A stretch of 64,000 nucleotides of DNA from Paenibacillus sp. DCT19 (GTDB taxonomy: Bacteria; Bacillota; Bacilli; Paenibacillales; Paenibacillaceae): assembly GCF_003268635.1 (NCBI RefSeq), contig NZ_CP029639.1, positions 6,554,001-6,618,000 on the forward strand, given 5' to 3'. The notes below the pieces were generated by a model. It was not told the DNA's origin, ran no database searches, and worked only from the letters and a program-made list of their open reading frames with translations. Below are positions 39,842 through 54,169 of the stretch, in pieces. The first letter of the stretch is position 1, and each line of letters starts with the position of its first letter. The position numbers and the translations under genes are program-made.

Positions 39842-39870
39842 AAAATCCACCTCTTGAAGAGGCTTTAAAC
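39842..39870 (-). terminator. Small terminator after a degenerate gene
   Basis: On the minus strand, CCTCTT and AAGAGG flank a minimal loop and are followed by TGGATTTTTTG. Its position fits the remnant at 39896-40092. Confidence 0.45.
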
Positions 39871-39895
39871 TGCCGTACTTATATTGAGAGATTCA

Positions 39896-40092
39896 TTACA
39901 TTGAGTCGATTACGAAGCTAGTGGAAAGAACAAAGAAGGTCAACAGCTTCGAGTATTTTCCCAATGCATACCACATTTTTTCAACAATTTCTTTATATGC
40001 ATGGTTGCTAGTCACTTCCATGACACCAATCAAAGAGATGGGGTAAGCAATAAAAAAACAATTTCAATTCCTGCAACGGCAAGCCATTCAAG
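39896..40092 (-). pseudogene. Remnant of a membrane protein gene
   Basis: Two overlapping frames on the minus strand join at a run of seven A/T (40052-40058). One gives LEWLAVAGIEIVF; the other gives FIAYPISLIGVMEVTSNHAY, KEIVEKMWYALGKYSKLL and TFFVLSTSFVIDSM-stop. One extra T joins them into a 63-residue stretch with two hydrophobic helices. An in-frame stop lies just upstream, so only a tail remains. The rest of the 39718-40262 gap is AT-rich and shows no further coding signal. Confidence 0.4.
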
Positions 40093-40262
40093 CTAATTTA
40101 CAGATGCGAAAGTCGATTGAATTATATTTAATTATTGACTTATTATGTAATTTATATATAATATATAACATATAAAATGTAAACACTTTATTATCCTTAT
40201 AAACCAATTTTTGAACAGTTGGCCAACTTTCAAATATACCAAATTTTGAAGGGACGATCACA

Positions 40263-41054
40263 ATGAAAAAGGTAGTTACAGCTTTATTGGTTACGGCATC
40301 CTTATTTGTAGGTAGCGTTTCATCTTTTGCATATTCTATAGATTCTTCAAATACAATTCCTACTAAAATGAATCCAGGAACCATAGTAGAGTATGACGAA
40401 ACCAACCAAATGATTGTTATTGACCAAGGTAAACTAGTAACACTGCCTTCTATTTATCAAAGCCAAATAACCCAGTTCAGTTCAGCAAAGGTAGATATAG
40501 AACAACTACAATCAGAAGAAGAATTTGTTGAGCAAATCAAAGAAGAAGCTAAAGATTTACCGGTATATAAAATAGAAAATCCTCTTCCACAACCGGGGTT
40601 GAGAGTTTTATACGATGGCGAAGGTTATATAAAAGAATTTATATATCCTCAGGAAAACGTCTTCGCATTAGCAGCATATAAAGCATTACCTAGAGGAACT
40701 AGAAAGGCAGCCGGTACTTATACTTACGGTAGTAATAATAATAAAATCACAATAACATCCAGTACTGTTCTTGGAGAAGGCCGTTTTACAAATTTCACTG
40801 ATACTACTGGTGAAAACAGCAATACACTCAAAAAAGGTGATGCTGCAACGAGGGGCGATATAGATAATCCTAAATATGAACAGGTACTGGATGCGCGAAA
40901 CTTGGATAATAATGTATTTGCTAATGTTACCAAAAGAGATAACGGAGCACTTCCTGACGCTACATTAGATATTTGGAAAACAGGTGTAGAACTATTTGAT
41001 TTAAAATGGTCTTCTTCTCTTTCATTTAAAGGTAGATACTTCTACTCATTCTAA
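40263..41054 (+). CDS. Secreted protein of unknown function (263 residues)
   Basis: A clear Sec signal peptide (MKKVVTALLVTASLFVGSVSSFA) is followed by a soluble, strand-rich protein with no recognised domain. Notable segments are MNPGTIVEYDETNQMIVIDQ, a Lys/Glu-rich helix around residues 75-100, and a Gly/Thr/Asn-rich C-terminal half (GTYTYGSNNNKITITSS). It starts behind GAAGGGA. Base composition is AT-rich compared with neighbours, and the same holds for the lipoprotein gene downstream, so the pair may have arrived together. Confidence 0.65.
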   Translation: MKKVVTALLVTASLFVGSVSSFAYSIDSSNTIPTKMNPGTIVEYDETNQMIVIDQGKLVTLPSIYQSQITQFSSAKVDIEQLQSEEEFVEQIKEEAKDLPVYKIENPLPQPGLRVLYDGEGYIKEFIYPQENVFALAAYKALPRGTRKAAGTYTYGSNNNKITITSSTVLGEGRFTNFTDTTGENSNTLKKGDAATRGDIDNPKYEQVLDARNLDNNVFANVTKRDNGALPDATLDIWKTGVELFDLKWSSSLSFKGRYFYSF

Positions 41055-41067
41055 ATTTAAAGTATTA

Positions 41068-41110
41068 AAGGAGGGGGCGGAATTCTTCGCCTCCTTATCA
41101 AATTTTTAAA
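41068..41110 (+). terminator. Terminator between secreted protein and lipoprotein genes
   Basis: AAGGAGG(GGG)CG pairs with CGCCTCCTT around GAATTCTT and is followed by a T-rich stretch. Confidence 0.65.
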
Positions 41111-41123
41111 AGGGTGATCATTT

Positions 41124-42182
41124 ATGCGAATAGAGTATTCGAAAAATTACTTCTTTCTATTTTTGTTTGTTTTACTCATTTTAATTTCAGGATGCAGTAA
41201 TGATGCAACAAATGTAAAAAAACCTTCTGTCGATATAAAAAATACTGTTTCACAATCCCGTGAATATCTCTCCATCACTAACACCGAATACGTCAATGGA
41301 ACAGATCCCAATGATGGAATGAAAATGAATGTGTATACATACGACTTACAGTCCAAAGCTCTCAACAAAATGACTGACTTACCATATAACTCTCAATATC
41401 CTCTGACCGTAGTTTCTTTGGCCGAAGACACCACCTATTATTCGGGCGAAGGCAAAAGTAAAGGCGACGAGTTATTCGCTTATGATATGAAAACACAGCA
41501 GGTGCAGCAATTAAGCTCCAATTTATTTGCGATTAATTCAATTATCCCGGATGTCACTGAGAATACACTAATGATGGCTGCTGTGCAAAAAGGAGAACGC
41601 CCTGTAAAAGTCATGTTTCTGGATAAAGCAACTCAAAAAATCTCGATATTAAATGAACAAGATTCAGATACGACCACATGGGACATCGCCTATGATCCGG
41701 AAACAGAAAAAGGATACGCCATTCAATATTCTGAGGATGAACAATACGAGCAGATGGAAAAGTCAAATCAGACCCAAAAACCGATGGTTCCACCGAGTCA
41801 TACCATTATCGAAATTGATCCCGTATCGAAACAAACTCGTGCAATAATTAAACTTAAAGATGAACAGATTCTCACTCTATCTGCCAGAGGAAATCAGCTT
41901 CTCATAGCAACTGCAAAATACATTAATAAGATGCCTATCGGGTATAGTCTGGTGGATCTGCAGACAGGACAACGAAAGGAACTTCAGCTTCCGATTAAAG
42001 CCAGCAGTGAACTATTTCTGGACAAAGACGGTAACGGGTTTTATTTTCTCGGGGAAAAAGGAAATGGAAATACCGAGCGAGGTATTTATTTTTATGATAT
42101 GAAAACGGACAAGATTGAGACTGTTTTCTTGCAAAAAGAAGGATTCATCAATAACTTCACGCTAGTATCTGAACTGAACTAA
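41124..42182 (+). CDS. Beta-propeller-like lipoprotein (352 residues)
   Basis: The lipobox is LISGC after a strongly hydrophobic signal peptide. The mature part repeats strand units of the kind MNVYTYDLQSKALNKMTDLP, DELFAYDMKTQQVQQLSS, VMFLDKATQKISILNE, HTIIEIDPVSKQTRAIIKL, YSLVDLQTGQRKELQL and GIYFYDMKTDKIETVFL, that is, six or more blades of a beta-propeller as in TolB/YncE-type folds. Function is unknown; surface-exposed propellers usually bind proteins or glycans. The ATG follows AAAAGGGTGA. Confidence 0.7.
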   Translation: MRIEYSKNYFFLFLFVLLILISGCSNDATNVKKPSVDIKNTVSQSREYLSITNTEYVNGTDPNDGMKMNVYTYDLQSKALNKMTDLPYNSQYPLTVVSLAEDTTYYSGEGKSKGDELFAYDMKTQQVQQLSSNLFAINSIIPDVTENTLMMAAVQKGERPVKVMFLDKATQKISILNEQDSDTTTWDIAYDPETEKGYAIQYSEDEQYEQMEKSNQTQKPMVPPSHTIIEIDPVSKQTRAIIKLKDEQILTLSARGNQLLIATAKYINKMPIGYSLVDLQTGQRKELQLPIKASSELFLDKDGNGFYFLGEKGNGNTERGIYFYDMKTDKIETVFLQKEGFINNFTLVSELN

Positions 42183-42190
42183 TCTAACAA

Positions 42191-42364
42191 ATGTCGTCAG
42201 AGCAGCTTTACTTGATTCACCATCCTGAAAGAAGCGCTAGAACTAAAAATGCCATTCAACACTTAGACTCTTTAGATCTATTAGATCAGGTCAGTACTAG
42301 AATAGAAGTAGCACGTCGGAATTCATTTATTGACAAAAAGTTATTTCAATTAAAAACATTTTAA
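42191..42364 (+). other. Possible 57-codon frame, doubtful
   Basis: The frame MSSEQLYLIHHPERSARTKN... ends KKLFQLKTF and looks protein-like (polar helices, Arg/Asp-rich), but it has no ribosome site. It may be a fragment of a lost gene just outside the left end of the genomic island. Confidence 0.2.
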
Positions 42365-42424
42365 ATGAGTTAGTTAAAGAATTTCGGCAAAACGATCTAA
42401 TGAATATACATCATAAATTTCGTC

Positions 42425-42470
42425 CTACTTATGGTACGGTTCACCGTATCGGTTGATATGGTAAAATAGA
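42425..42470. mobile_element. Left attachment site of the rlmH island, with displaced rlmH end
   Basis: On the minus strand, 42442-42425 reads GAACCGTACCATAAGTAG, which encodes Glu-Pro-Tyr-His-Lys-stop, the normal C-terminus of RlmH proteins in this phylum (for example GEPYHK in Bacillus). It is cut off from the rest of rlmH by 11.3 kb. The direct repeat TGAACCGTA (plus strand 42435-42443) also occurs in the resident rlmH end (53700-53708). To its right, ACCGTATCG (42443-42451), eight bases and GGTAAAATAGA (42460-42470) form the element arm, repeated in inverted orientation at the other end. Confidence 0.85.
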
Positions 42471-42477
42471 GTAAGGA

Positions 42478-42508
42478 AAAGGAGAGGTGTGTTGCCTCTC
42501 CTTTCATT
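42478..42508. terminator. Terminator at the left end of the island
   Basis: AAAGGAGAGG and CCTCTCCTTT form a perfect 10-bp stem with a 7-base loop, directly after the DUF6602 gene; T-rich on both sides. Confidence 0.8.
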
Positions 42509-42509
42509 T

Positions 42510-43784
42510 CTACTTATTCTGCTTTAATGCCCATCGAGTCAACCTGCCAGTTTTATCTTCTGCCGCATATGTTTTTCCACCACAATAAACAATACGACAT
42601 TCATCAGTCAATAGTTCAATCTCTCTTTTATCATTTAAATAAGCTAAACCCTTTTTACGAAGGCTTGTGACAATATCATCTAAATCACGATTTTCTTTCT
42701 TTAGCCAGTCAACGAAAATATCTTCATCTACATTTAAAATCTCTCCATAACAAAGCCAATTGATAATCATATGTTCTTGATCATCAAGTTCAGCAGGAGT
42801 CCATTCATACATGTCCACTCTTTCTTCTAAATCTTTTTTCTCAACATAATGATAATTATATTCCCATCCTGTTTGGTTACCGATTTTTTTAGGTCGGGCA
42901 GAAATATAACGATGCAATACTTCGGCTTCCAAGTCTTCTCCAAAAATATCACTTGAAATATTATATCGATAAGTTAATCTTGTCCACAACAGTTCTAATA
43001 AATGTAGTAATGGATTGTGTGATGAGCTCGCATATACATCCCAAAAATCATTTTTATCGACATTTCCAATGTAAGGCATTGCGTTTAATTTCACGAGAGA
43101 ACTATTCCTAGCCACGATTAAATTCGGGAAATTTATAGGCCCGAACCCCTTCTTTATATTCATAGAATCAGGGCTCATGTTGTCATCAAGATAGTTAATA
43201 AAAGACTCTCTTAAACTATATTCAGATGAATAACCGTAATATCCAAAAACTATTCTAAGCGGTAATAACTCTTCAATAATAAGAGTGTGATATAACATTT
43301 GCTCTGTTAGATTCAAGTTCACAAGTTGTGCTTTTTCTGGTAATTCCTTTTTTACAATCTGCTTATATGCATCTCTTACAGGATGTATTTCTATAGGATC
43401 ATGATCACTAATTTCAAAAATCCTTCTCATCTTTTGATGTGAGTCAATTAAATCATCGAGATATAAATTCTTCTTCACTTCAATAACCGCTAATACCTGA
43501 GAACAAGAGTACACATAATCATTAGAATAAGGAAGCTTTTCCCCTTCACCTTCCACAATCATACAGTCTGTTTGGTGACTTAACTCCCCTTTACTATTCT
43601 TAATCATACCGGAAACAACACGGATATCTAAATTTTTCGGTAAACTCTTTTCTAGTATATCAGTTGTCAGACCTTCATACATTTGACCAATCATGGAACC
43701 ATGTTTTACAAATTCGAAGTTCTTTATTGTTTCCTTCTCCTTATCCATTAAGTCCTTAAGCAAGTCAGCTACTGTTGTTAACAT
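42510..43784 (-). CDS. DUF6602-type protein with a PD-(D/E)XK nuclease-like core
   Basis: This is a 424-residue soluble protein. The N-terminal 110 residues match the DUF6602 pattern: GSMIGQMYEGLTTDILEKSLP (containing E37), a short hairpin, QTDCMIVEGEGE (D73) and AVIEVKKNL (E102, K104). E...D...ExK is the arrangement of PD-(D/E)XK nucleases. The C-terminal 300 residues are of unknown function, with Trp/Tyr-rich segments and a helical end. The start follows TAGGAGG. DUF6602 proteins are found scattered in accessory DNA; a restriction or anti-phage role is an inference. It is the outermost cargo gene. Confidence 0.65.
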   Translation of the reverse strand: MLTTVADLLKDLMDKEKETIKNFEFVKHGSMIGQMYEGLTTDILEKSLPKNLDIRVVSGMIKNSKGELSHQTDCMIVEGEGEKLPYSNDYVYSCSQVLAVIEVKKNLYLDDLIDSHQKMRRIFEISDHDPIEIHPVRDAYKQIVKKELPEKAQLVNLNLTEQMLYHTLIIEELLPLRIVFGYYGYSSEYSLRESFINYLDDNMSPDSMNIKKGFGPINFPNLIVARNSSLVKLNAMPYIGNVDKNDFWDVYASSSHNPLLHLLELLWTRLTYRYNISSDIFGEDLEAEVLHRYISARPKKIGNQTGWEYNYHYVEKKDLEERVDMYEWTPAELDDQEHMIINWLCYGEILNVDEDIFVDWLKKENRDLDDIVTSLRKKGLAYLNDKREIELLTDECRIVYCGGKTYAAEDKTGRLTRWALKQNK

Positions 43785-44289
43785 CGTATCCTCCTAGAAA
43801 ACGTATTCTATAGTGTTGATGAATTAGTTTCACAATATCTGTTCAGCGTAAGCTAACTGCCTATGAATGTGATGAGTATTATAGAATCCCTATATGAATC
43901 TGCTACTATACTATGCTATCATATAATGGTTTATAGATGACAAGTTCACTTCGCGTGTCTGCTTTATATGTGCTTTACAACCTAACGGCAATGATATACT
44001 AAGCACATTATTTAAATCTAAGAGGTAAGATCGACATATTGGTGTTTCTCAACCTATGTGCCGCTAACCCGTCCATTGCATGACATATCAGAGCTTCTTT
44101 ACTTGAATAGGTGTCAAGATCGCGGCCGTTCAGATGGATCTGGAGCCTCTCAAGCTTGGAGGTAGACACGTCTAGAAGACTGATACTGAACTGACTGCTT
44201 AAAAAGCTAAATTGAATTTGCCGGATAAAATTCAGCCAGATGATGGTGAACTTTTATCATTATCTTTAAGAACGTGAGGTAGCTTTTAT
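43785..44289. other. Non-coding stretch inside the island
   Basis: 505 bases between divergent genes. Short protein-like fragments on the plus strand (for example around 44110-44180 and 44200-44270) are broken by stops and may be eroded coding sequence. I recognise nothing and see no strong structure. Confidence 0.35.
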
Positions 44290-44691
44290 ATGAAGATCAG
44301 TGTGTATGCTGTCGGAGACAAGATGGAAAAGTTCTATCTTGAGGCCACTAAAGAATATGAGAAGCGACTGAGCCGCTACTGTAGTATTAAGCTTGTTCAG
44401 TTGAAGAAGATAGACGATCTGCAAAAGAAATTGAATCCCAACTCATTCGTTATAGTCATCACAACTTTGGGTAAGAGCATTTCTTCGGAAGAACTGGCGG
44501 TTAAGCTCGATCAAAACGCATCGTCAGGCGTCTCTGACATCTCCATAGTTGTTGGTGCAAATCCATCTGAATACAATGAAACTCTGACACTGAGTCAGAT
44601 GGAGATGGACTTCGGGTTACAAACAACCGTTCTGGTTGAACAAATTTATCGAGCTTATCGCATCATCAACAATCATCCATACCACAAATAA
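44290..44691 (+). CDS. Divergent RlmH-like SPOUT methyltransferase paralogue carried by the island
   Basis: This 133-residue protein aligns with RlmH, which methylates pseudouridine 1915 of 23S rRNA at N3. It keeps MKISVYAVGDKMEKFYLEATKEYEKRLSRYCSIKLVQL, SISSEELAVKL, VEQIYRAYRIINNHPYHK and the overall order. It lacks about 20 residues of the charged middle segment and the SAM-binding GGSHG loop, which reads VVGANPS here. Its C-terminus, HPYHK, is intact, unlike that of the resident RlmH. It starts behind GAGGT and points toward the resident gene. Whether it is catalytic is unclear. Confidence 0.8.
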   Translation: MKISVYAVGDKMEKFYLEATKEYEKRLSRYCSIKLVQLKKIDDLQKKLNPNSFVIVITTLGKSISSEELAVKLDQNASSGVSDISIVVGANPSEYNETLTLSQMEMDFGLQTTVLVEQIYRAYRIINNHPYHK

Positions 44692-44709
44692 ATGGTTATA
44701 TTATGGACA

Positions 44710-44744
44710 GCACTCACACATAGTTATATTACTTGCGTGAGTGC
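44710..44744. terminator. Hairpin between the RlmH-like and HEPN genes
   Basis: GCACTCAC and GTGAGTGC form a perfect 8-bp stem with a 19-base AT-rich loop between two convergent genes. Confidence 0.6.
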
Positions 44745-44767
44745 ATCTTCATACAATTTATTGTAAC

Positions 44768-45565
44768 TCATAATTCAATAACCGGATGCTCTAAAAAAAT
44801 TTCCGCTAAAAGCTGTATGTCGTTTAATTGAGTTGAAATAGTTCTTCGCGAGATCAAATTCTCTGAATTGTGAGGTCCTAATCTCGCTTGTGGATGTATA
44901 CAACGATTTCTACTTTCTCTCAATCCCTTTATTTTCTCCTCATCAAAAAATGCATTATATTGAGAAGCATGTTCGGCAACTTTCTTATCAAATACTAACC
45001 TATCGAATTCTTTAATACTTGTATCAAAAAAGTGCTCAATTACTTTAAAAAATTGCTCAAATCGCCTAAGTGGATTTTGTATGCGTAGTGCATCAGTATA
45101 AGTTGCTAGAACAGATGAATAATTAAATTTATCTTGATTCATAAACATTTCAGGATCAAGCTTATCTGGAATGTTCAGCATTCCCCCAATAGAACTGTAG
45201 CCAATAAGAGTTTCACTCCTTAAAAGCTCTTCTTCTTCAGTGTTTTCCGCCTCGTAGGTAGGGCTTTCCAAAAACAGTGACTCGGCATCCAACAATTGAA
45301 GTTTTGTTTGGACATAAACCGAATTAGAACAGAACGAAGCTATTCTATAGACCCTCATTTCTAGGTTGTCTTGTTCTTTAAAAACAAATCCATCTTCATT
45401 CTTACCAATCACTTCAACATTGCTTACTGAAATACAAACCCCTTTGAAAAGTCCGCTTTCGTTAGCCTCCCATTTGACCTTACAATCTTCTATATAAGAA
45501 GTCACTTCTTGATTGAAAGGCCGGCGAATCAACGGGTTAGCTTTGAGATAGTAGTTAATCTTCAT
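44768..45565 (-). CDS. HEPN-domain protein (Apea-like), 265 residues
   Basis: The C-terminal part (residues about 150-260) is helical with FEQFFKVIEHFFD followed by RESRNRCIHPQA, in which R219 and H224 give the RX4-6H signature of HEPN ribonucleases. The N-terminal 140 residues are strand-rich and of unknown fold (KWEANESGLFKGVCISVSN). HEPN proteins of this kind act as RNases in abortive-infection and toxin systems. The start follows GAAGGAG. It is the last gene of a five-gene run on the minus strand, 93 bases after another HEPN-like gene. Confidence 0.7.
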   Translation of the reverse strand: MKINYYLKANPLIRRPFNQEVTSYIEDCKVKWEANESGLFKGVCISVSNVEVIGKNEDGFVFKEQDNLEMRVYRIASFCSNSVYVQTKLQLLDAESLFLESPTYEAENTEEEELLRSETLIGYSSIGGMLNIPDKLDPEMFMNQDKFNYSSVLATYTDALRIQNPLRRFEQFFKVIEHFFDTSIKEFDRLVFDKKVAEHASQYNAFFDEEKIKGLRESRNRCIHPQARLGPHNSENLISRRTISTQLNDIQLLAEIFLEHPVIEL

Positions 45566-45658
45566 CTCTTTCTCCTTCTACAATTTTGAATGCCTGCATG
45601 AAAAGTGTTTGCAATAAAACATTAAAAGCTATTCATATCATCGTTTCCTAATAATAAA

Positions 45659-46966
45659 TTAAAACATAGGACTTCCACTGGCCATAATAATCTGTTGAGC
45701 CACTAACTTAATTAACTCAATGTCATACGTCAAATACTCAGCTTGTTTTGAAAAAGGTAAGATCATCTCAACGTTTTGATCTACGTCACTGGCTTTTGTA
45801 TGGACAATTTTACAACGTATATCATATATCCGCTCCTTTAGGTTATTGATCAGCTCGTCATCATCTTGATTTTGAGTGAGCGGAACAGATGAAATCTGCT
45901 TACTGTGCTTTCCTTGCTCATTCTTCATAGAGAAAAAATCACTCTTTTTAGTACCCCTTAGAAAATCTCTGACTTCATCAGGGTTCACACACTCTCTTAA
46001 GGTTGATAACAATTGTGTTCTCTCGTTAGCAAACCCTCTGCCATTTAATCTTGGTCGAATCATAGTAATTAATTTTGTTAAATCCTCATCCTTGTCTTCA
46101 TCGAAAACTGGATTTTTTAATATTTTCTTCAACATCTTCTTTGCATCAAGTTCAGTGTACATTGGAAAATAGAATTCAATTGCCTGATAGAAAGCAAGAT
46201 ATTGTAACAAAGGCATCTTTGTAGCACTTCTAGCGTACCAATACAAAGAAATAGCATCATTGTTATATTTCATCTTTGGAAACTTCAACTCAGCAACATT
46301 GGCTTTCTGAGGCATTACACCGCCTATCCCAATTGAGCTTCTCTTAGAAAGCATCAAAGGAAGTTTAAATCTCAAGTCAATTTGGAAAAAAAGTGAATCA
46401 CTAATTCTTTTTAATAGTTCTACTGCCTTGTCATGTTGATTTATATTTACTCCCCTGATTTTTATAGAAACAGGAGAATTTCTTCTCATTTCTTTTTTCA
46501 TTAACAAAGATAGTTCTTTTGACCAGCCACTTAATTCAATGGTTACATGCCCAATGTCACTTTCCTGGCTTAAAACAATGGGTTCACTTGCTAATGTAGA
46601 TTGGAATTCACCAAACAATCTTCGGTTAATAAAACCGTTATGTTGGCTAATGTATACATGTTCAATGCTGGCCTCTATCATTTTATTTTCATATGAGCAT
46701 ATTGCTGTATAGTGTTTTAAGACAGTGTATCTCTCAAAATCAAATTCCAAGAAGTTAAGAGCAATGGATTCTTCATCTAATGCAACTTCATACTTATCCC
46801 TTCCGGAATTCATTTTCAATAAAAATTCACCTGCCTCAGTAACGTACTCAACATTGGATGTAGTACAGCGAGCAATTAGTTCAGCCTTTGTACTTTCACT
46901 AATACGCTCTTTTGCTGTTTTGACCGCCGCTTGCATTGACCTCTCATCCATTACCAAATCATACAT
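45659..46966 (-). CDS. Second HEPN-like protein, 435 residues
   Basis: The final 200 residues contain MPLLQYLAFYQAIEFYFPMY, the typical HEPN helix seen in Apea-like proteins, and later ERIYDIRCKIVHTKAS, where R384 and H389 give the RX4-6H motif. The first 200 residues are strand-rich with no family I recognise (AELIARCTTSNVEYVTEAGE; ALNFLEFDFERYTVLKHYTA). It starts behind AAGGAG. A terminator-like hairpin lies just upstream, so expression may be lower than, or independent of, the kinase genes. Pairing with the 265-residue HEPN protein suggests a heteromeric RNase or an RNase with a regulatory twin. Confidence 0.65.
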   Translation of the reverse strand: MYDLVMDERSMQAAVKTAKERISESTKAELIARCTTSNVEYVTEAGEFLLKMNSGRDKYEVALDEESIALNFLEFDFERYTVLKHYTAICSYENKMIEASIEHVYISQHNGFINRRLFGEFQSTLASEPIVLSQESDIGHVTIELSGWSKELSLLMKKEMRRNSPVSIKIRGVNINQHDKAVELLKRISDSLFFQIDLRFKLPLMLSKRSSIGIGGVMPQKANVAELKFPKMKYNNDAISLYWYARSATKMPLLQYLAFYQAIEFYFPMYTELDAKKMLKKILKNPVFDEDKDEDLTKLITMIRPRLNGRGFANERTQLLSTLRECVNPDEVRDFLRGTKKSDFFSMKNEQGKHSKQISSVPLTQNQDDDELINNLKERIYDIRCKIVHTKASDVDQNVEMILPFSKQAEYLTYDIELIKLVAQQIIMASGSPMF

Positions 46967-46987
46967 CTCCTTCGCAAATGGAAAGTT

Positions 46988-47016
46988 GAAAAAAGAAGAG
47001 GGGCTTCCCCCTCTCC
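46988..47016 (-). terminator. Terminator inside the putative defence operon
   Basis: On the minus strand, GAGAGGGG, GAAG and CCCCTCTT form a tight hairpin followed by CTTTTTTC, just after the frameshifted gene and 22 bases before the HEPN start. It may attenuate read-through into the two HEPN genes. Confidence 0.7.
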
Positions 47017-48296
47017 CTAAATGTTATCCATGAATTCTTCAAATGCCTTTGTCCAAACAGCAATATGTCGACCATCATCTTCTAATGGTGCTGTGCTGAA
47101 TCTTGATTGTAACAACAGTTGGTTTGCTTCGGCAGATTGGAGCCATTCAAGGGTATAATCAAATCTTGCCTGCATGTCTGACAGATCAATAGTCGATAAC
47201 TCGTTACTCGCTCTAACTAACCTTTCAATTTTATGAATTGTGGCCGTAGTAACGTTGTTCAAACTTTCACGCCATAATGGTACATCATTGGCTGATAATC
47301 CATCTTTCAAAGCGTTCAATAAATCTTCGCTCGCTTCTGTATGATCATTCATTAAGAGCCTTAATAATTTGCCATCCCTTAACTTAGATAGATCACGATC
47401 TGTCAAAAATTCAAGCAAAAGTGTATGAGAATAAAATCTTGGGTAGGCTCCCCCTCCACCTTCTTCAAGGAAATCATCCAGATTCATTCTTCTAGTTTTA
47501 TTCGTATAGCCACCCGCAAAACCTGTAGCCCCCACGGCTAAACAAGCATAGCCGAATGCGTCAGCGAAATTCACCATAACAATCTTTTCATTTTGAGCCC
47601 CTACAATATGACTGATATAAAGAAGAGTTTCAGCAACTCTTTTGTGATTAGTTCTAATAGAGCCATTTCCCGTTTGTACAGGAAGCACATAGATACCATC
47701 CAGTTCTTCTCTTGCTGAAAGATTATCAATAATAGTTTGAATGACTTTATTTTCGAGTGGATTTTGATGAAGTACAATGTTATCCGTGAAGGCAACTGTT
47801 GCTAACATACTGTGATCATACTCTGCTTTTAGTTCTATCGCGGCGTCAATCCAATTGAGTTGAAGTGCAAATTCATCCTCGGAGTCTTCAACTAATGGTG
47901 TAGGAATTATTAAATGAGTCACACCAAGGCCTACTTGGAAATCAAAACAGCCTCTCAAGCTATCAAGTATTTCCTCTTTTATAACAGGCAAAGTATATGG
48001 CCATGCCATAGATGTTTTGTGGTCATCAAACCATTCTCTTTGAGTTTGAATTTGACTATCAAACTCGTACTCACTCCCCCAAACCAGGGATATGTCGATA
48101 ATCTAGCACATGTATTATTGCAATTATCAAAATTTAAACCAGATAGATATAACTGGGGATCAAAGAGCAAGCAATCAGGTGTGACTGACAAATTTCTTCT
48201 TGTGGCCTGTGCTTTATGTACACCGCTTGCATTAATCACCACACCATCAACACGATCATGATTAGTCCACTTGTAGCCAACATTGAGTAAAAACAT
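47017..48296 (-). pseudogene. Unknown protein (about 425 residues), frameshifted near the N-terminus
   Basis: The gene begins with an ATG overlapping the kinase stop (TGATG): MFLLNVGYKWTNHDRVDGVV, ...CLLFDPQLYLSGLNF, ...LSTYPWFGG. It then leaves frame at a run of five G (48076-48080), and the adjacent frame continues SEYEFDSQIQTQREWFDDHK to the stop at 47017. A sixth G restores one frame. The body alternates strands and helices (LGVTHLIIPTPLV, MLATVAFTD, ELDGIYVLPVQTG, KIVMVNFADAFGYACLAVGATGF), like an (alpha/beta) barrel with weak resemblance to tRNA-guanine transglycosylase-type barrels. I cannot name it. If the shift is real, the system may be crippled. Confidence 0.65.
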
Positions 48297-49126
48297 CAAA
48301 TCACCTCTTCGATAAGACTTAGAATTTGTTTACATGATGACGGCCTTCTTACTGGGTTGGCCTGTAACATCCACCTAAGAGCTTGTTCAAGCCGCGAGTC
48401 CACCTCTACAAATTCACTCAAGGGAAGTGGTTCCATATTCCCAATATGGAACTGATTCTTATGGAATGGATGTACTCCTGCCAAAGCTTCATAAACAACA
48501 ATCCCCAAAGCAAAAAGGTCAACTCTTAATGTGAAATTCTTTCGTCCGCGAAGCTGTTCAGGAGCCATGTATCCCAGTGTACCCATAATCATCCCAGCCA
48601 TTGTAATCGTCTGAGTGTCAAGGTGCTTGGCTAGACCTAAATCTATAAGTTGAAACTCACCCGAAATAGAACACATGATATTTGCCGGTTTAATATCACA
48701 GTGGACAATTCTTAACTCCCACATTTCTTCTATTGCAAACAACATCTGCTTAAGGAGTTTAGCCGCTTCAGATTGACTAAGAGTGGCCTTCTCTAAATAC
48801 TTCTTGAGATCTGTTCCAGGCACATATTCTGTAGCAACAAAAAAACATTCCCTTCCTCTCAGAGCTAAGCTTCCATGGTCAACTAATCTTGCTAAGTGCG
48901 GGGACTTAGTTTTTTCAAGTTTGGCAACTTCAAGTTCAGCACGTTTTATAAGTTGATCTGGTGAATACACCTTTACAGCTATCTCTTGAGAATCATGACT
49001 AAGTACTGCTTTAAATACCGTCCCCTGACCTCCATCACCAATCGGAGAAAGGAACAAGAATTGCTCTCCTATAGAAGTGCCGTTGAGTTCATCAACTGTA
49101 ATCTCAGGAGTAAATGGTTTGCTCAT
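48296..49126 (-). CDS. Eukaryotic-type Ser/Thr protein kinase, soluble
   Basis: This 276-residue kinase domain has no membrane helix or sensor domain. Motifs: glycine loop GDGGQGTVF (30-38), catalytic Lys in AVKVY (K52), helix-C Glu in AELEVAKL, VHCDIKPANIM (HRD variant HCD with catalytic D144), DLG in place of DFG (D162), and GYMAPEQLRG. All catalytic residues are present, so it should be active. The ATG at 49126 sits behind AAGGGG, after a TTG. It overlaps the next gene and lies 16 bases after the wHTH/nuclease-like gene. Ser/Thr kinases such as staphylococcal Stk2 and PglW act in phage defence; a similar signalling role is inferred. Confidence 0.88.
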   Translation of the reverse strand: MSKPFTPEITVDELNGTSIGEQFLFLSPIGDGGQGTVFKAVLSHDSQEIAVKVYSPDQLIKRAELEVAKLEKTKSPHLARLVDHGSLALRGRECFFVATEYVPGTDLKKYLEKATLSQSEAAKLLKQMLFAIEEMWELRIVHCDIKPANIMCSISGEFQLIDLGLAKHLDTQTITMAGMIMGTLGYMAPEQLRGRKNFTLRVDLFALGIVVYEALAGVHPFHKNQFHIGNMEPLPLSEFVEVDSRLEQALRWMLQANPVRRPSSCKQILSLIEEVI

Positions 49127-49142
49127 CAAAATTTCCCCTTGT

Positions 49143-49856
49143 TTATTGAATAAAGCCCCATTTAGAATTTTGGCATATTAAATCTCTACAAAGTCGAAGT
49201 CTTTGAAGTCTGAAATCAGAGTACTTATATGACTTATTCTTTTTAGGCTCAAAAAGAATTGTGACTGTACTGTTAGCACTTACACTCATCAAACCAATAT
49301 TCGCATCCATAAATTTCTGCACAATTTCCGGTTTGAACTGCATTCCCTGATCCATAGCCACGTAAGAGTAATCAGCAAAATTCAAGTTATATACTGCTTG
49401 ATCTAATGCTTCTTGCCACTTAACAAGTTTGGCTTCTATAGCTACAACATATGTTGGCGAAACAGTGGACCAGCCCGTTGAAGAATAGGTATATTTGGAT
49501 ATCCGCTGAACCAGTTCAAGTTCCAAGAAACGATTTAAGTAAGAATCCTTAATTCTTTCAGGTTTCATCCTCAAAATTTTGCTCAGCCGCTGTATTGATA
49601 TCCCCTTTTGGTGTGTCATAAAAATAGCTAAGACATCTAGCTGAGACATGTTTAGCTTTTTTAAAGAGCGTTTGTAATCATTGTTGTTTAAAGTGTTTGT
49701 ATCCGCATGTATCGGAGCAAACAAGAGATCGACAATTCGATGATTCACTGGAAGCTCTTCTGCAACAGCAATCAAGCTGTCCACCTCTTTATTTAGTAAA
49801 GTCTCGTATTGGGACTTAATGATAGGGATCATTTCCATCTCTAAAGCGAATTCCAT
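49143..49856 (-). CDS. Winged-helix protein with PD-(D/E)XK-like core
   Basis: This 237-residue protein has two parts. Residues 70-125 form a MarR-like winged helix (MSQLDVLAIFMTHQKGISIQ, RLSKILRMKPERIKDSYLNR). Residues 135-175 contain YVVAIEAKLVKWQEALDQAV and ADYSYVAMDQ, the E-x-K plus Q pattern (E141, K143, Q153) common in PD-(D/E)XK nuclease-like domains that have a WxxAlxQA helix. It starts behind AGAGGT and is the first gene of the five-gene run. It could be the DNA or phage sensor, or an effector nuclease, of the system. Confidence 0.65.
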   Translation of the reverse strand: MEFALEMEMIPIIKSQYETLLNKEVDSLIAVAEELPVNHRIVDLLFAPIHADTNTLNNNDYKRSLKKLNMSQLDVLAIFMTHQKGISIQRLSKILRMKPERIKDSYLNRFLELELVQRISKYTYSSTGWSTVSPTYVVAIEAKLVKWQEALDQAVYNLNFADYSYVAMDQGMQFKPEIVQKFMDANIGLMSVSANSTVTILFEPKKNKSYKYSDFRLQRLRLCRDLICQNSKWGFIQ

Positions 49857-50640
49857 AATAATTACCTCTTTCCGTTGGATTGTATCCAGCTTAGTAGTTA
49901 ATTTGCCCTACAAATCCTCCGAATATAGTCCATAGTACCCCATTAGGGAAAAAGTGTAAATACCACCCTGTGATGGGATTATTGGGCGGTAAGTGAATGA
50001 AACTGTAGGCAGCTCTCCGCCACCCCCACTTTTCAGCGAATTATATATAAATTCAACATATACTGGCCCATATCCTTGCTCACGCTCAGGCTTGACCTAA
50101 TTATACTATTTCATATATTCGCTTTTTAATTATTTTGTAACAGAGGTACTATTCAGAATACCCAACCTCGCGGCGATAGACTATAGACAGCAAACAGCGG
50201 AAAAGACAACTGCATCCTCTCCGCTGTTTATATTATTCATCCACATTAATCTATCCGTATCCTCACGCTGTCTTCTTCAAGCTTCCCTCTCAGATTATCA
50301 TTCTTTATTACATAGTGCATATTCAGAAAGTCTTTCTCACAAATCAGCCCCGCTTCTGGAGTATTTTAATCTTCTGTGCTGAGAGTAACAAGTTCGTCAG
50401 AAAGCCTTTATAATGACAATTTTACTTAAAGAATGAATTACTGTGCTTCTGAGAAACAACTTGGTAGTAATTTTAATTAAAGGCCTTGGCTTCCTCGAAC
50501 CACCTACAAAAACACTACAAAAAAGCCATAATTACAGCTTGCTAACCTTCATCCAAGACGAAAAATGATGATCTCTTGCATAACTCAATCTATTTATTGT
50601 ATAAAATCCTATTTTGTAACACAGTCCTGAATAAATAATA
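49857..50640. other. Long spacer inside the island with one terminator and one gene remnant
   Basis: 784 bases without an intact gene. It should hold the promoter of the kinase operon. AAACAGCGGA (50192-50201) and TCCGCTGTTT (50220-50229) form a strong hairpin. Just above it on the minus strand, 50366-50246 encodes TPEAGLICEKDFLNMHYVIK and NDNLRGKLEEDSVRIRID-stop, the probable tail of a lost gene for which the hairpin was the terminator. Confidence 0.45.
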
Positions 50641-52077
50641 TCAATGTTCCTGTTCTTTGAGCAATTGATAGATTTCCGTATGTCCTAATTCCTCAGCAAT
50701 CTGAAGTATACTCTTCTCTCCTTCGATAAATCTGTTACTATCAGCTCCGTGTTTTAGCAATAGCTGCACCATGTTAATTGAGCCTAATTCTACTGCAATT
50801 TGGAGCGGTGAGGATAAAGGGGTTCCCATTTCAGGATCTGCTCCATGATCAAGCAATTGGCTCACTAACTCTACTTCATCATCCTGAACAAGTATGGACA
50901 ACGGGGTTTCTCCTCTGAAAAAGTAATCTGGATCAGCACCGTACTGAATTAAGAGGCTTATCAAAGCAACGTTTTTATTACGGGCAGCCGCTATTATTGA
51001 TGAAGAATTGGCAGGATCGGCCCCTTGATCCAGCAAACGGACTACTTCATTATAATTATCATCGGCTACAGCATAGTACAAATCTTCATCGAGAGCATCA
51101 CTTACATCTATAGAGTTTTCTGCCTGTTGTAATTGTCCTTTAATCACTCCCATAATTTCAATCAGATTCATATGGGCATATTTGCTGTCCCCATATAGGG
51201 CAATCACTAGCTCAGTTATAATCGGAGAATCCTGATCTATAATAATTGGAGTGCCATCCACTTGTAAATTTTCTTGTTCCCAGCTCTTCATCAAGCCTGC
51301 AACGATAACCACCAGACGTTCATACCCTACCATTTCACTCCAGTTATAACCGTTGATCTCAGTTGCAATAGCTGTCCATTCTTTCTTGTACTCAGTTGTG
51401 TCACTAGATGTAGAGTTCACCGTTGTTGCCAGAGATGTATTCATATTCTCAGTTTGCTCTCTTCGTATATTTTGACTCAGACTATCTGAAACAGCTCGGA
51501 AAGTTGTAAAGAAATTAAACATAAAGCTTATGATGGCAATGAGGGTTGGCAGAAGAATTAGTATAAAAGGTAGAGCTAGATTGACGCCTCCTGCTTTGAC
51601 AATATCACGTTCGCCTGATAAGACATGTTCAACAACTTGGTGGACACGGTCAATTTTACGTTTGGTATGACGTAAGTAAAGTTGATTGCCTGTTGTACCG
51701 ATTATCACTTTGAAGATACTATACATGACTGTACCTGTTATTACTGGGGCGACCAATGAGTTAGACATGTTTGATACCATAGTTCCAATTAAATAAATGC
51801 TAAAGTAAACCACTGCTAGGTAGATAAAGAAGTACCTATACATTCTTCTGTAGAGCAACCAGTAGAAATCAAAGATAAACGCTGCCCAGTTCCATGCACT
51901 GTCCTCTCTCCATTTTTGTAGATATGTATCTTCATTCTTGCCAATGAATAAGGACAACTCCCCTTCGGATATCCCCATAATCATTTCTTCAGTAGTTGGC
52001 ACATCATCCGTATTTTCTTCATTCAACTGAGACAGCACATACCAAATATCTGAGTCTTCCAGTTTACGATGATTCAT
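50641..52077 (-). CDS. Membrane-anchored ankyrin-repeat protein (478 residues)
   Basis: Residues 58-110 and 125-150 are hydrophobic helices around WNWAAFIFDFYWLLYRRMYR, which resembles the small DUF2628-type membrane module. A further helix (ALPFILILLPTLIAIISFMF, about 165-187) precedes a soluble part. The last 150 residues are four ankyrin repeats (DNYNEVVRLLDQGADPA; ALISLLIQYGADP; ELVSQLLDHGADP; NMVQLLLKHGADS). The start follows GGAGGCG. Ankyrins bind proteins; no partner or function can be named. It lies in the island, separated from the kinase operon by the long spacer. Confidence 0.75.
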   Translation of the reverse strand: MNHRKLEDSDIWYVLSQLNEENTDDVPTTEEMIMGISEGELSLFIGKNEDTYLQKWREDSAWNWAAFIFDFYWLLYRRMYRYFFIYLAVVYFSIYLIGTMVSNMSNSLVAPVITGTVMYSIFKVIIGTTGNQLYLRHTKRKIDRVHQVVEHVLSGERDIVKAGGVNLALPFILILLPTLIAIISFMFNFFTTFRAVSDSLSQNIRREQTENMNTSLATTVNSTSSDTTEYKKEWTAIATEINGYNWSEMVGYERLVVIVAGLMKSWEQENLQVDGTPIIIDQDSPIITELVIALYGDSKYAHMNLIEIMGVIKGQLQQAENSIDVSDALDEDLYYAVADDNYNEVVRLLDQGADPANSSSIIAAARNKNVALISLLIQYGADPDYFFRGETPLSILVQDDEVELVSQLLDHGADPEMGTPLSSPLQIAVELGSINMVQLLLKHGADSNRFIEGEKSILQIAEELGHTEIYQLLKEQEH

Positions 52078-52097
52078 CTTGTCGCCTCCGTCATTGA

Positions 52098-52129
52098 TAA
52101 AAAACGGACTGGTTTCAGCCCGTTTTATA
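52098..52129. terminator. Terminator between propeller and ankyrin genes
   Basis: AAAACGGACTG and CAGCCCGTTTT form a stem with a short loop and T runs on both strands. Confidence 0.8.
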
Positions 52130-52137
52130 AAATATTG

Positions 52138-52950
52138 CTACAGATTGATTCTGCGGATGGACTTGCTGTTGTCGTCATAAAAAATAACATTTCCTTTTAC
52201 GAATGTAATCATATTACCGTCTGTTGCCATCTCGTAGACAGTGTCAGCCATAGTCATGTACATTTTCCCGTTGTAAGTAGAAACGCTATCATACCGGCTA
52301 CCATCATACTCAACGATCTTTTTCACTTTCACAGGAAACCTTTGCAGATCATACATCTTACTTCGGCCAAACACATATAGATTGTTAGCTGTTGCATGTG
52401 CGGCTGCTACAGGAGCATATCCATAGTAGTCCGTCAGATCAATTGCGTTGTAGGTCGTACTACTGACTACTTGCTCGACTTGCGATTGATTCAATTTCCC
52501 TTCAAAGATATTCAATTCGTGACTGGCTGTGACACCATACATAACGCTCTCAGCATCGGGGAACGCAATGAAGTCCATATAACGGGCTGCGACATGGTTA
52601 ACATCATACGTAGCTACGCTGATGCTGTTGGTGATGTCGTAAAGGATTGTGGCAGTTGAATGTCCTGAAAATACTATTGCGGCGAGATACAGTTTGCCAC
52701 TCGCTGAATTATAGGCAAGTTTGAGGGGCGTCAGGTCTTTATAGTCATAGTGTTTCGTTTTCCCGTCGGCATCCTTGTAGTTCCAATTGAAATCCTGATT
52801 GATCGTTTTGAATGTCTCTATCGTTCCGTTAGAACTGTTAAATTTACGTATCTTCAATTTCTGACTATCTAGGAAATAGATGTTGTTGCTCTTGTCCACA
52901 ACCATGCTGTCAATCTGGTTAATCTTCTCTGTTCGCACAGGGCCATCAAA
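52138..52950 (-). pseudogene. Beta-propeller (NHL-like) protein, N-terminally truncated
   Basis: The remaining 270 residues begin in the middle of an NHL-type repeat: DGPVRTEKINQIDSMVVDKS followed by NNIYFLDSQKLKIRKF. Further blades follow (LKLAYNSASGKLYLAAIVF, MDFIAFPDAESVMYGVTASH, VSTYNGKMYMTMADTVYEM). There is no signal peptide, ribosome site or proper start; the GTG at 52938 is only the first in-frame start after the break. The sequence upstream is integrase coding sequence on the opposite strand, so the gene was cut by a deletion or rearrangement at about 52945. Confidence 0.7.
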
Positions 52951-53690
52951 AGGACAAACATATCGATACTATATCTGCGGACAATTTCATAACAAAGGAA
53001 AAACTGTTTGTCGCTCCAATAGTATTCGAGCGGATGTGGCCGAGAAGCAGTTGCTTGAGGATCTTGTCCGTATCGCTTCTCGACCAGAAATCACTCATCA
53101 ATTGGCATATAATATTAACAAGATTCGCTCCCATACAGATGCTCCCTTGCAGGCAGAGAAGAAAGCTATCTTGGATGAGCTGAACACTGCAAGCAAGAAG
53201 CTTCAAAAGCTCAAAGACAAACTACTGGAAAATCTTGAGCTAGTCCCTATTCTCAAGCCTGAGCTTATGAAAGTCCATACGAAACATGAACAGTTACACA
53301 AAAACCTTGAAGCTGTGGAAGCAAAGATTGCCGAGGACAACAGTACTTTAGTAGATGCAGATGCTCTGTATAATCTCCTAATACTCATAAAAGACAAATT
53401 GATTACTTTGGATGCCGAAGAACAAAAAGTTCTATTGCGATTGATGGTCGAGAGTATCCAAATTACTATGGAAGCTCCCCGTAGTTTAGGACGGCAGGTG
53501 AAAAAAATAAACTTACATTTCGATTTCACATTTGAAGATGAGGCCCGACACTCCTTCGACTTACTTGAACGCCTGTCATCGGGCAAAACATTGGACTTCA
53601 TTGCTCCGGTTGAACCGTGGATGCTTGATCCAAGTATTAATTTGAAAATAGAAAGGGATTCCATTATGGAGTCCCTTTCTATTTTACCCT
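52945..53690 (+). pseudogene. Large serine recombinase/integrase, C-terminal fragment
   Basis: The fragment starts inside the zinc-ribbon: KGQTYRYYICGQFHNKGKTVC (one Cys pair; the first pair is lost), then SNSIRADVAEKQLLEDL, followed by the long coiled coil (residues rich in Lys/Glu/Leu, LDELNTASKKLQKLKDKLLE) and TLDAEEQKVLLRLMVESIQI, all typical of large serine recombinases such as phage integrases and Ccr proteins. The N-terminal resolvase domain with the catalytic Ser is absent. Its frame has no stop before rlmH and runs into the antisense of rlmH through the attachment site. It is therefore the dead integrase of this island. Confidence 0.88.
53649..53682. terminator. Hairpin between integrase fragment and rlmH
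   Basis: AGAAAGGGA-TCCAT and ATGGA-TCCCTTTCT form a long imperfect stem. It can end rlmH transcription on the minus strand and integrase transcription on the plus strand. Confidence 0.75.
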
Positions 53691-53710
53691 TAAAGGCGAT
53701 ACGGTTCATT
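53678..53710. mobile_element. Right attachment site at the rlmH stop
   Basis: Reading the minus strand: TGAACCGTA (53708-53700) lies in the last codons of rlmH, followed by TCG, eight bases (53696-53689) and GGTAAAATAGA (53688-53678). ACCGTATCG-N8-GGTAAAATAGA is the same arm as at 42443-42470, inverted. The probable crossover dinucleotide is at 53706-53707. Confidence 0.85.
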
Positions 53711-54169
53711 CCGATTGATCTTCACTGCGCGATAAATCTGCTCCGCCAACACCAGCCGCATAAGCTGATGCGGCAGGGTCATGCGCCCGAAGCTCAAGCG
53801 CTGCTTCGCGCGGCGCAGCACCTCATCGGAGAGCCCATGGCTTCCTCCGATGACAAACACGACATGGCTCGTCCCATACGTGCCGAGCTTGTCGATCTCC
53901 ATAGCCAGCTCCTCGGAACTCCAGAGCTGGCCATCCAATGCGAGCGCGACAACATGCGCCTCGCTCTTCACATGCGCGAGGATGCGTTCGCCCTCGCGCT
54001 CCTTCACCGCCCGTACCTCTGCTTCGCTCAGGGTATCGGGCGCTTTCTCATCTGGGACCTCGATCATCTGAAACTTGATGTACGGGGCGAGCCGCTTGGC
54101 ATATTCCTGAATGCCGAGCGTTAAATATTTTTCCTTCAATTTGCCTACGCCAATAATTTGAATCAACAT
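53690..54169 (-). CDS. rlmH: 23S rRNA (pseudouridine1915-N3)-methyltransferase RlmH, C-terminus altered by insertion
   Basis: This 159-residue SPOUT enzyme methylates pseudouridine 1915 in helix 69 of 23S rRNA. It has the start [32 protein letters not shown], the SAM-binding [13 protein letters not shown] (108-112 GGSHG) and [23 protein letters not shown]. The tail reads NEPYRL-stop instead of the family's EPYHK; the last two codons and the stop come from the inserted island. The original end is still present at 42425. The gene starts behind TTAGGAGG. The C-terminal Tyr-His region lies close to the active site in known RlmH structures, so activity may be changed. Confidence 0.95.

What the first reader, a model, noticed from the sequence alone, without database searches (positions are those of the whole stretch)
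42425..53710. An 11.3-kb serine-integrase island in rlmH of a Paenibacillus-like genome, with attP and attB readable from the sequence
Seen: direct repeat TGAACCGTA at 42435-42443 and 53700-53708; the missing RlmH tail (Glu-Pro-Tyr-His-Lys-stop) stranded at 42442-42425; 28-base arms at both ends in inverted orientation with 9/9 inner and 11/11 outer matches; a large-serine-recombinase fragment against the right end. Joining the ends gives a 58-bp dyad around GA, as expected for attP; joining the flanks restores rlmH with the family C-terminus, as expected for attB. Known: staphylococcal SCC elements insert at the same gene end using serine recombinases (Ccr). Inference: an SCC-analogous class of islands exists outside Staphylococcaceae.
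Basis: partly seen in the sequence, partly recalled or inferred. Interest (0 to 1): 0.95.

Follow-up and report, generated by a model that had tools for sequence, protein, structure and literature searches.

The report
Mobile island carrying half an enzyme
A mobile DNA island in a Paenibacillus-like bacterium inserts into the end of a gene for a ribosome-modifying enzyme, changes that enzyme's essential tail, and brings along a small partner protein that has kept the tail but lost the other half of the active site, so the two probably work as a mixed pair.

Summary
In detail: an 11.3-kb island of the large-serine-recombinase (LSR) type sits in the 3' end of rlmH, with readable attachment sites and a decayed LSR. 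SCC-like islands at rlmH outside staphylococci are already published, so that inference is not new.

What was missed is more interesting. Insertion changes the RlmH tail from Tyr-His-Lys to Tyr-Arg-Leu, and the island carries a second, 133-residue RlmH relative (RlmH2, 44290-44691). In E. coli RlmH one monomer binds SAM and the other supplies the essential C-terminal tail. Of the 120 closest RlmH2 proteins, 119 keep the tail histidine and none keeps Gly107 or the Thr-x-Pro-His motif of the SAM side. Six of six RlmH2 islands found at rlmH change the host tail; one related tail-keeping island lacks RlmH2. Independently, eight genomes outside the family carry RlmH2 beside or together with a long RlmH that has lost its tail; 228 of 228 control genomes seen match through the tail.

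Best reading: RlmH2 and host RlmH form a heterodimer that rebuilds the split active site. Gene facts are shown; the heterodimer is inferred. Against it, four of ten Paenibacillaceae genomes with RlmH2 have an intact host tail.

The parts
42425..42442 (-). Stranded original 3' end of rlmH (Glu-Pro-Tyr-His-Lys-stop)
   Evidence: same reading as the uninterrupted rlmH end in G013
42440..42469 (-). Left element arm of the attachment site (inverted partner of the right arm)
42510..43784 (-). DUF6602 protein, weak similarity to PD-(D/E)xK nucleases; cargo
   Evidence: Pfam DUF6602 62.7 bits; PADLOC PD_DExK E 1e-14
44290..44691 (+). rlmH2: 133-residue short RlmH with intact Tyr-His-Lys end and without the SAM-side motifs
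   Evidence: Pfam SPOUT_MTase 98 bits; dN/dS 0.10 against G261
44768..45565 (-). Unknown protein, 265 aa; cargo
   Evidence: no Pfam match
45659..46966 (-). Unknown protein, 435 aa; cargo
   Evidence: no Pfam match; weak PADLOC DzbB match E 4e-9
47017..48009 (-). Unknown protein, 330 aa; cargo
   Evidence: no Pfam match
48296..49129 (-). Protein kinase-like protein; cargo
   Evidence: Pfam Pkinase 148.7 bits; PADLOC mad6 and PD-T4-6
49143..49856 (-). Unknown protein, 237 aa; cargo
   Evidence: no Pfam match
50641..52077 (-). Ankyrin-repeat protein with DUF2628 domain; cargo
52138..52947 (-). C-terminal remnant of an S-layer-homology protein that is full-length in related islands
   Evidence: compare L055:9392-11167 and L155:7392-9191
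52949..53641 (+). C-terminal remnant of the LSR (zinc ribbon and coiled-coil region); catalytic domain missing
   Evidence: Pfam Zn_ribbon_recom; 72% identical to the C-terminal part of the G261 and G198 LSRs
53679..53708 (-). Right element arm, which now encodes the altered rlmH end (Tyr-Arg-Leu-stop)
53690..54169 (-). Host rlmH: SAM-side motifs intact, catalytic tail changed from YHK to YRL

Best explanation
The interval is an integrative island of an rlmH-targeting LSR family, now probably immobile because the catalytic half of its recombinase is missing. Recombination at the GA of ...GAACCGTA... replaces the last codons of rlmH, so the host protein ends Tyr-Arg-Leu, not Tyr-His-Lys. Judged from E. 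coli mutants this should abolish catalysis by the host homodimer while leaving its SAM-binding knot intact. The island brings RlmH2, a short paralogue that has lost the SAM-side loop and the Thr-x-Pro-His motif but keeps Glu138, Arg142 and the Tyr-His-Lys tail (E. coli numbering). Host RlmH supplies the SAM side and RlmH2 the tail side of the composite active site, so a heterodimer restores methylation of 23S rRNA pseudouridine 1915 while the island is integrated; excision would regenerate the normal tail. The same split occurs as neighbouring chromosomal gene pairs elsewhere in the Bacillota. Shown by sequence: the island, the tail change, the complementary losses, the gene pairs. Inferred: heterodimer formation, its activity, and the loss of host homodimer activity.
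For: Tail change, LSR or LSR remnant abutting rlmH, and RlmH2 occur together in 6 genomes: the window, G082, G043, G261, G198, G289. G083 has a related LSR island (47-51% identical LSR) whose arm keeps the YHK end, and no RlmH2. In E. coli RlmH one monomer gives the SAM site and the other the tail; Y152F, H153F, R154A, E138A and E138Q are inactive (PMC5430550, passages). Short RlmH2, n=120: E138 120, R142 120, Y152 118, H153 119, K154 119; G107 0, T/P/H of MTxPH 0, G104 3. Six of six non-Bacilli genomes with RlmH2 in a 398-genome phylum sample have a neighbouring long RlmH that ends before the tail, as do Youngiibacter and Lutispora, where the genes are apart. Controls without RlmH2: 149 listed rows and 79 of 80 further genomes match to residue 158-159; 30 of 30 read in full end Tyr-His-x. 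dN/dS of rlmH2 between window and G261 is 0.10.
Against: No experiment and no complex model (structure prediction was off). Four of ten Paenibacillaceae genomes with RlmH2 have an intact host tail: G292 (element at another site), G319 (LSR remnant, tail YHK), G308 (RlmH2 on a short contig) and G368 (RlmH2 elsewhere). Brevibacillus G631 keeps Tyr-His but with a changed and longer end, AYHTKP. In an Epulonipiscium MAG with RlmH2 no long RlmH was found. The tail-keeping contrast rests on one island, G083. The tailless set was picked for lacking the tail, so only its retained SAM side is informative. 88 phylum genomes with an RlmH match were not seen row by row, and a match to residue 158 cannot exclude a YHK-to-YRx change (the window's own row ends at 158). 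The genomes are related, so counts are not independent events.
Confidence: 0.72

Rival explanations
1. RlmH2 is a self-sufficient replacement enzyme: insertion disables host RlmH and the island's copy takes over as a homodimer.
For: RlmH2 is a SPOUT-family protein with an intact tail, under purifying selection, and occurs with tail-changing insertions.
Against: None of 120 RlmH2 keeps Gly107 or Thr, Pro and His of the SAM side; in the fixed pairs the long RlmH keeps a complete SAM side beside RlmH2.
Confidence: 0.12
2. RlmH2 regulates or competes with RlmH, or serves recombination (for example directionality or site exclusion), and does not restore catalysis.
For: It travels with the element even when the element sits at another site (G292); four genomes have it with an intact host tail.
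Against: It does not explain why unlinked or LSR-free genomes with RlmH2 have a long RlmH without a tail, nor why exactly the catalytic tail residues of RlmH2 are kept.
Confidence: 0.08
3. An ordinary SCC-like island; RlmH2 is unrelated cargo and the tail change is harmless.
For: SCC-like islands at rlmH are known in several genera; the LSR's best NCBIfam match is CcrB.
Against: His and Arg/Lys of the tail are essential in E. coli; the tail is Tyr-His-x in 30 of 30 controls read; the co-occurrence of RlmH2 with lost tails recurs outside islands.
Confidence: 0.08

Closest known systems
Staphylococcal cassette chromosome (SCC) and Enterococcus cassette chromosome (ECC)
   Same: Insertion at the 3' end of rlmH, large serine recombinase, att sites that include the last codons of rlmH, variable cargo (PMC6222049, PMC10061031, passages).
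   Different: The LSR is below the Ccr cutoffs (CcrB 379 of 900 bits); the insertion changes the catalytic end of RlmH; the island carries RlmH2. That SCC insertion leaves the RlmH end intact is recalled, not tested.
LSR islands downstream of rlmH in other Bacillota (for example Paenibacillus pinistramenti)
   Same: Same target and recombinase class, tandem arrays with repeats of the rlmH end (PMC10061031, passages).
   Different: The passages seen do not mention an altered RlmH tail or a second RlmH.
RlmH, 23S rRNA pseudouridine-1915 methyltransferase (composite-site homodimer)
   Same: Host RlmH and RlmH2 together hold every residue named for the composite active site.
   Different: The known enzyme is a homodimer with both halves in each chain; here the halves lie in two different genes.

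Membership tests
SCC/ECC cassette chromosome | Inserted at the 3' end of rlmH with repeats of the gene end at both borders | tested here: met
SCC/ECC cassette chromosome | Ccr recombinase (CcrA, CcrB or CcrC) above the curated cutoff | tested here: not met
   G082 and G043 LSRs: CcrB 379 and 372 bits against 900, CcrC 318 and 316 against 900; the window's own LSR is a fragment
SCC/ECC cassette chromosome | SCC-type helicase or primase genes beside the recombinase | tested here: inconclusive
   Pfam named no helicase among ten proteins of the G082 island, but only that island was scanned gene by gene
Large serine recombinase element | Recombinase with Resolvase, Recombinase and zinc-ribbon domains adjacent to the attachment site | tested here: met
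   met in the G082 relative; the window keeps only the zinc-ribbon end
Large serine recombinase element | Recombinase acts on these attP and attB sites | not testable with these tools
   needs a recombination assay
RlmH (for RlmH2) | NCBIfam RlmH equivalog cutoff | tested here: not met
   best 88.6 bits against 172; the Pfam SPOUT_MTase cutoff is met, 98 against 27
RlmH (for RlmH2) | SAM-side motifs GGxxG and MTxPH | tested here: not met
   0 of 120 keep G107, T, P or H
RlmH (for RlmH2) | Catalytic Glu, Arg and Tyr-His-Lys/Arg tail | tested here: met
   118 to 120 of 120 at each position
RlmH (for RlmH2) | Methylates pseudouridine 1915, alone or as a pair | not testable with these tools
   needs biochemistry

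The most novel reading that the evidence does not exclude
RlmH exists in a heterodimeric form: a long subunit that binds SAM but lacks the catalytic tail, and a short subunit that supplies the tail but cannot bind SAM. It is fixed as a gene pair in parts of the Bacillota, and a mobile island has captured the short subunit and forces the arrangement on its host by replacing the host enzyme's tail at integration.
Probability: 0.7. Interest if true: 0.9.

Novelty: new variant of a known kind. Interest (0 to 1): 0.82.

Why it matters
It would be a mobile element that makes up for damage to a conserved gene not by restoring the lost end but by supplying the complementary half of a shared active site. 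It predicts a natural heterodimeric RlmH, so the one-SAM-site, one-tail model of this small enzyme could be tested with subunits that evolution has already separated. It also warns that genes annotated as rlmH include two incomplete kinds.

Tried and rejected
Rejected: (a) the island as proof of a new SCC-like class outside staphylococci; such islands are published. (b) RlmH2 as a plain duplicate of the host gene: 32% identical to it and separated from all long RlmH of the tree by a branch with support 100/99. (c) RlmH2 as a common plasmid or phage gene: the matches in 10 plasmid and 9 phage records are at most 35% identical and have the span of ordinary RlmH; a viral-contig scan gave one 33% match. 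(d) Tail loss as a single assembly error: it was read in 8 genomes and in database proteins named from Thermoanaerobacter, Caldanaerobacter and Tissierella.

Led nowhere: structure prediction; the genome-contig scan kept 80 of 505 relatives, by match length mostly ordinary RlmH; far ends of the G198 and G289 islands were not found in the fetched stretches.

Rows dropped: G775 (E 0.009, partial match 23-120) from the 80 genomes. In one search P0135 was left out and P0173, which has YHK plus three residues, counted as intact. From I followed only loci whose match was about 400 bases (L067, L068, L069, L074, L105, L117); L100, L120 and L095, of intermediate length, were not counted as RlmH2. The 149 rows were counted by hand.
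Full report
Observation. The window is G000:C1:6554001-6618000 of a 6.67-Mb single-contig genome. The chromosomal rlmH (53690-54169, -) ends ...NRNEPYRL*, whereas 28 of 29 relatives read end EPYHK and one EPYHR. The missing GAACCGTACCATAAGTAG lies at 42442-42425(-). Around the shared GA the two element arms match at 21 of 27 positions in inverted orientation, and 0 of 200,000 shuffles reach this. G013 shows the uninterrupted gene end, followed by the same methionine-synthase-like gene that lies beyond the window's island; 2.57 kb of the window (39852-42424) is extra relative to G013.

The island family. A search of 75 genomes of the genus with the LSR fragment gave matches in 10, the window's own included; the three best others, G043, G082 and G083, lie directly beside rlmH with open frames of 703, 692 and 535 residues. 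The G082 LSR has the Resolvase, Recombinase and zinc-ribbon domains; its best NCBIfam match is CcrB, 379 bits against a cutoff of 900. In the window the LSR is cut at 52949 and meets a truncated S-layer-type gene; 6.55 kb present at this point in the G261 island is missing. The window's island is therefore probably immobile.

RlmH2. The island holds a second RlmH-like gene (44290-44691, +), 133 residues. In the genus search only G043 and G082 have a close relative of it (65%), the two genomes with the best LSR matches by E-value. A family sample found it in 9 of 344 genomes, the window's own included; G082, outside that sample, makes ten. In six of the ten, RlmH2 lies in an island at rlmH with an LSR or LSR remnant abutting the gene, and all six have altered tails: YRL in the window, G043, G261 and G198; YRF in G082; YRR in G289. 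In the other four the host tail is intact. G292 carries LSR and RlmH2 at another site, one side of which resembles the rlmH end. G319 keeps RlmH2 and an LSR remnant beside an intact rlmH. G308 has RlmH2 on an 11-kb contig, and G368 has it far from rlmH. G083 is the contrast: a related LSR island (47-51% identical LSR) whose arm itself encodes the YHK end, with no RlmH2 found in the genome.

Why the tail matters. In E. coli RlmH one monomer gives the SAM site and the tail of the other gives residues essential for catalysis; Y152F, H153F, R154A, E138A and E138Q show no detectable activity (PMC5430550, passages). Alignment shows two complementary kinds of incomplete RlmH. Short RlmH2 (the 120 best of 834 found) keep E138 in 120, R142 in 120, Y152 in 118, H153 in 119 and K154 in 119; they keep G107 and the T, P and H of MTxPH in 0, and G104 in 3. 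Long RlmH picked for lacking the tail (n=25) keep G107 and the T, P and H in 25. Intact RlmH (n=101) keep all of these, with K in 98 and R in 3 at the last position.

Fixed pairs. In a sample of 398 phylum genomes, short RlmH2 was found in the window's genome and six others. All six have a long RlmH whose match stops at residue 146-152, with ends such as LLEQLNRIV*, LVEQLSSIFNQS* and LLEQIYLAFSGENHL*, and in all six the two genes are neighbours. Two of the six are also held as named records, a Bacillota MAG (L105) and a MAG labelled Sumerlaeota (L117). Youngiibacter (ends NEIAAAR*) and Lutispora (ends GYRINMGER*) have a tailless long RlmH too, with RlmH2 apart from it. Brevibacillus G631, from the class sample where 2 of 398 genomes matched, has a neighbouring pair with the altered end AYHTKP. 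In an Epulonipiscium MAG no long RlmH was found. Controls without RlmH2: all 149 other rows listed and 79 of 80 further genomes match to residue 158-159; 30 read in full all end Tyr-His-x. Of 324 genomes with a match, 88 were not seen at row level. Database proteins named from Thermoanaerobacter, Caldanaerobacter and Tissierella also lack the tail; one from T. kivui is named RlmH 2.

Evolution. In a tree of 44 proteins one branch (support 100/99) separates all RlmH2 from all long RlmH, and the Paenibacillaceae RlmH2 form a group (93/94). Between the window and G261 dN/dS of rlmH2 is 0.10, although the window's island has lost its recombinase domain.

Mechanism. Shown: the island, the tail change, the complementary losses, the gene pairs. 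Inferred: a heterodimer of host RlmH (SAM side) and RlmH2 (tail side) that restores activity. A self-sufficient RlmH2 is disfavoured by the loss of the SAM-side motifs, and unrelated cargo by the matched losses. The four genomes with RlmH2 and an intact tail show that the pairing is not strict; there RlmH2 may be redundant, which I did not test.

Prior art. SCC-like islands at rlmH outside staphylococci are published (PMC6222049 and PMC10061031, passages). I found no report of a heterodimeric RlmH or of an island-borne RlmH in the searches, of which I saw listings, nor in the passages seen of PMC9508554. The library lacks most subscription journals.

Noticed in passing
L060 (G007:C1:5528001-5546500): Five copies of the rlmH end (PYHK-stop) within 18 kb, as in tandem islands; several are flanked by a different arm type, AACTTGCCGTTAC before and CGGCAAGTTT or CGGCGAAA after.
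   Followed up: no
L065 (G020) and L061 (G076): Three copies of the rlmH end in each stretch; in G020 one includes a partial second rlmH with a stop inside.
   Followed up: no
L003-L031, bases after the rlmH stop codon: 14 of 29 relatives share GGCA or GGCG, after at most one other base, right behind the rlmH stop, although the DNA beyond differs; it may be part of an attachment site.
   Followed up: partly
L055:16841-18916 and L056:1149-3257: In the integrated state the LSR reading frame runs on through the attachment site into antisense rlmH, giving 691 and 702 residues.
   Followed up: no
L157 near 2120 and L158 near 5373 (G292): A complete relative of the island sits at a site other than rlmH; one border reads GAACCGCATCATAAGTAA, much like the rlmH end.
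   Followed up: partly
window 39852-42424: 2.57 kb with two genes without Pfam match, absent from G013 between rlmH and the methionine-synthase-like gene; possibly an older insertion.
   Followed up: partly
L160 (G308) and L064 (G050): Two LSR genes side by side within a few kilobases of rlmH, an arrangement like ccrAB.
   Followed up: no
L164:16463 (G368): A degenerate copy of the rlmH end lies about 6 kb from RlmH2, far from the chromosomal rlmH.
   Followed up: no
P0199 and P0205: Long RlmH proteins that end ...GEP and lack just Tyr-His-Lys; they could mark insertions at the same codons.
   Followed up: no
window 48296-49129 and 42510-43784: Kinase-like and nuclease-like cargo with matches to anti-phage defence models; the G082 island carries a type III-like restriction pair.
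   Followed up: no
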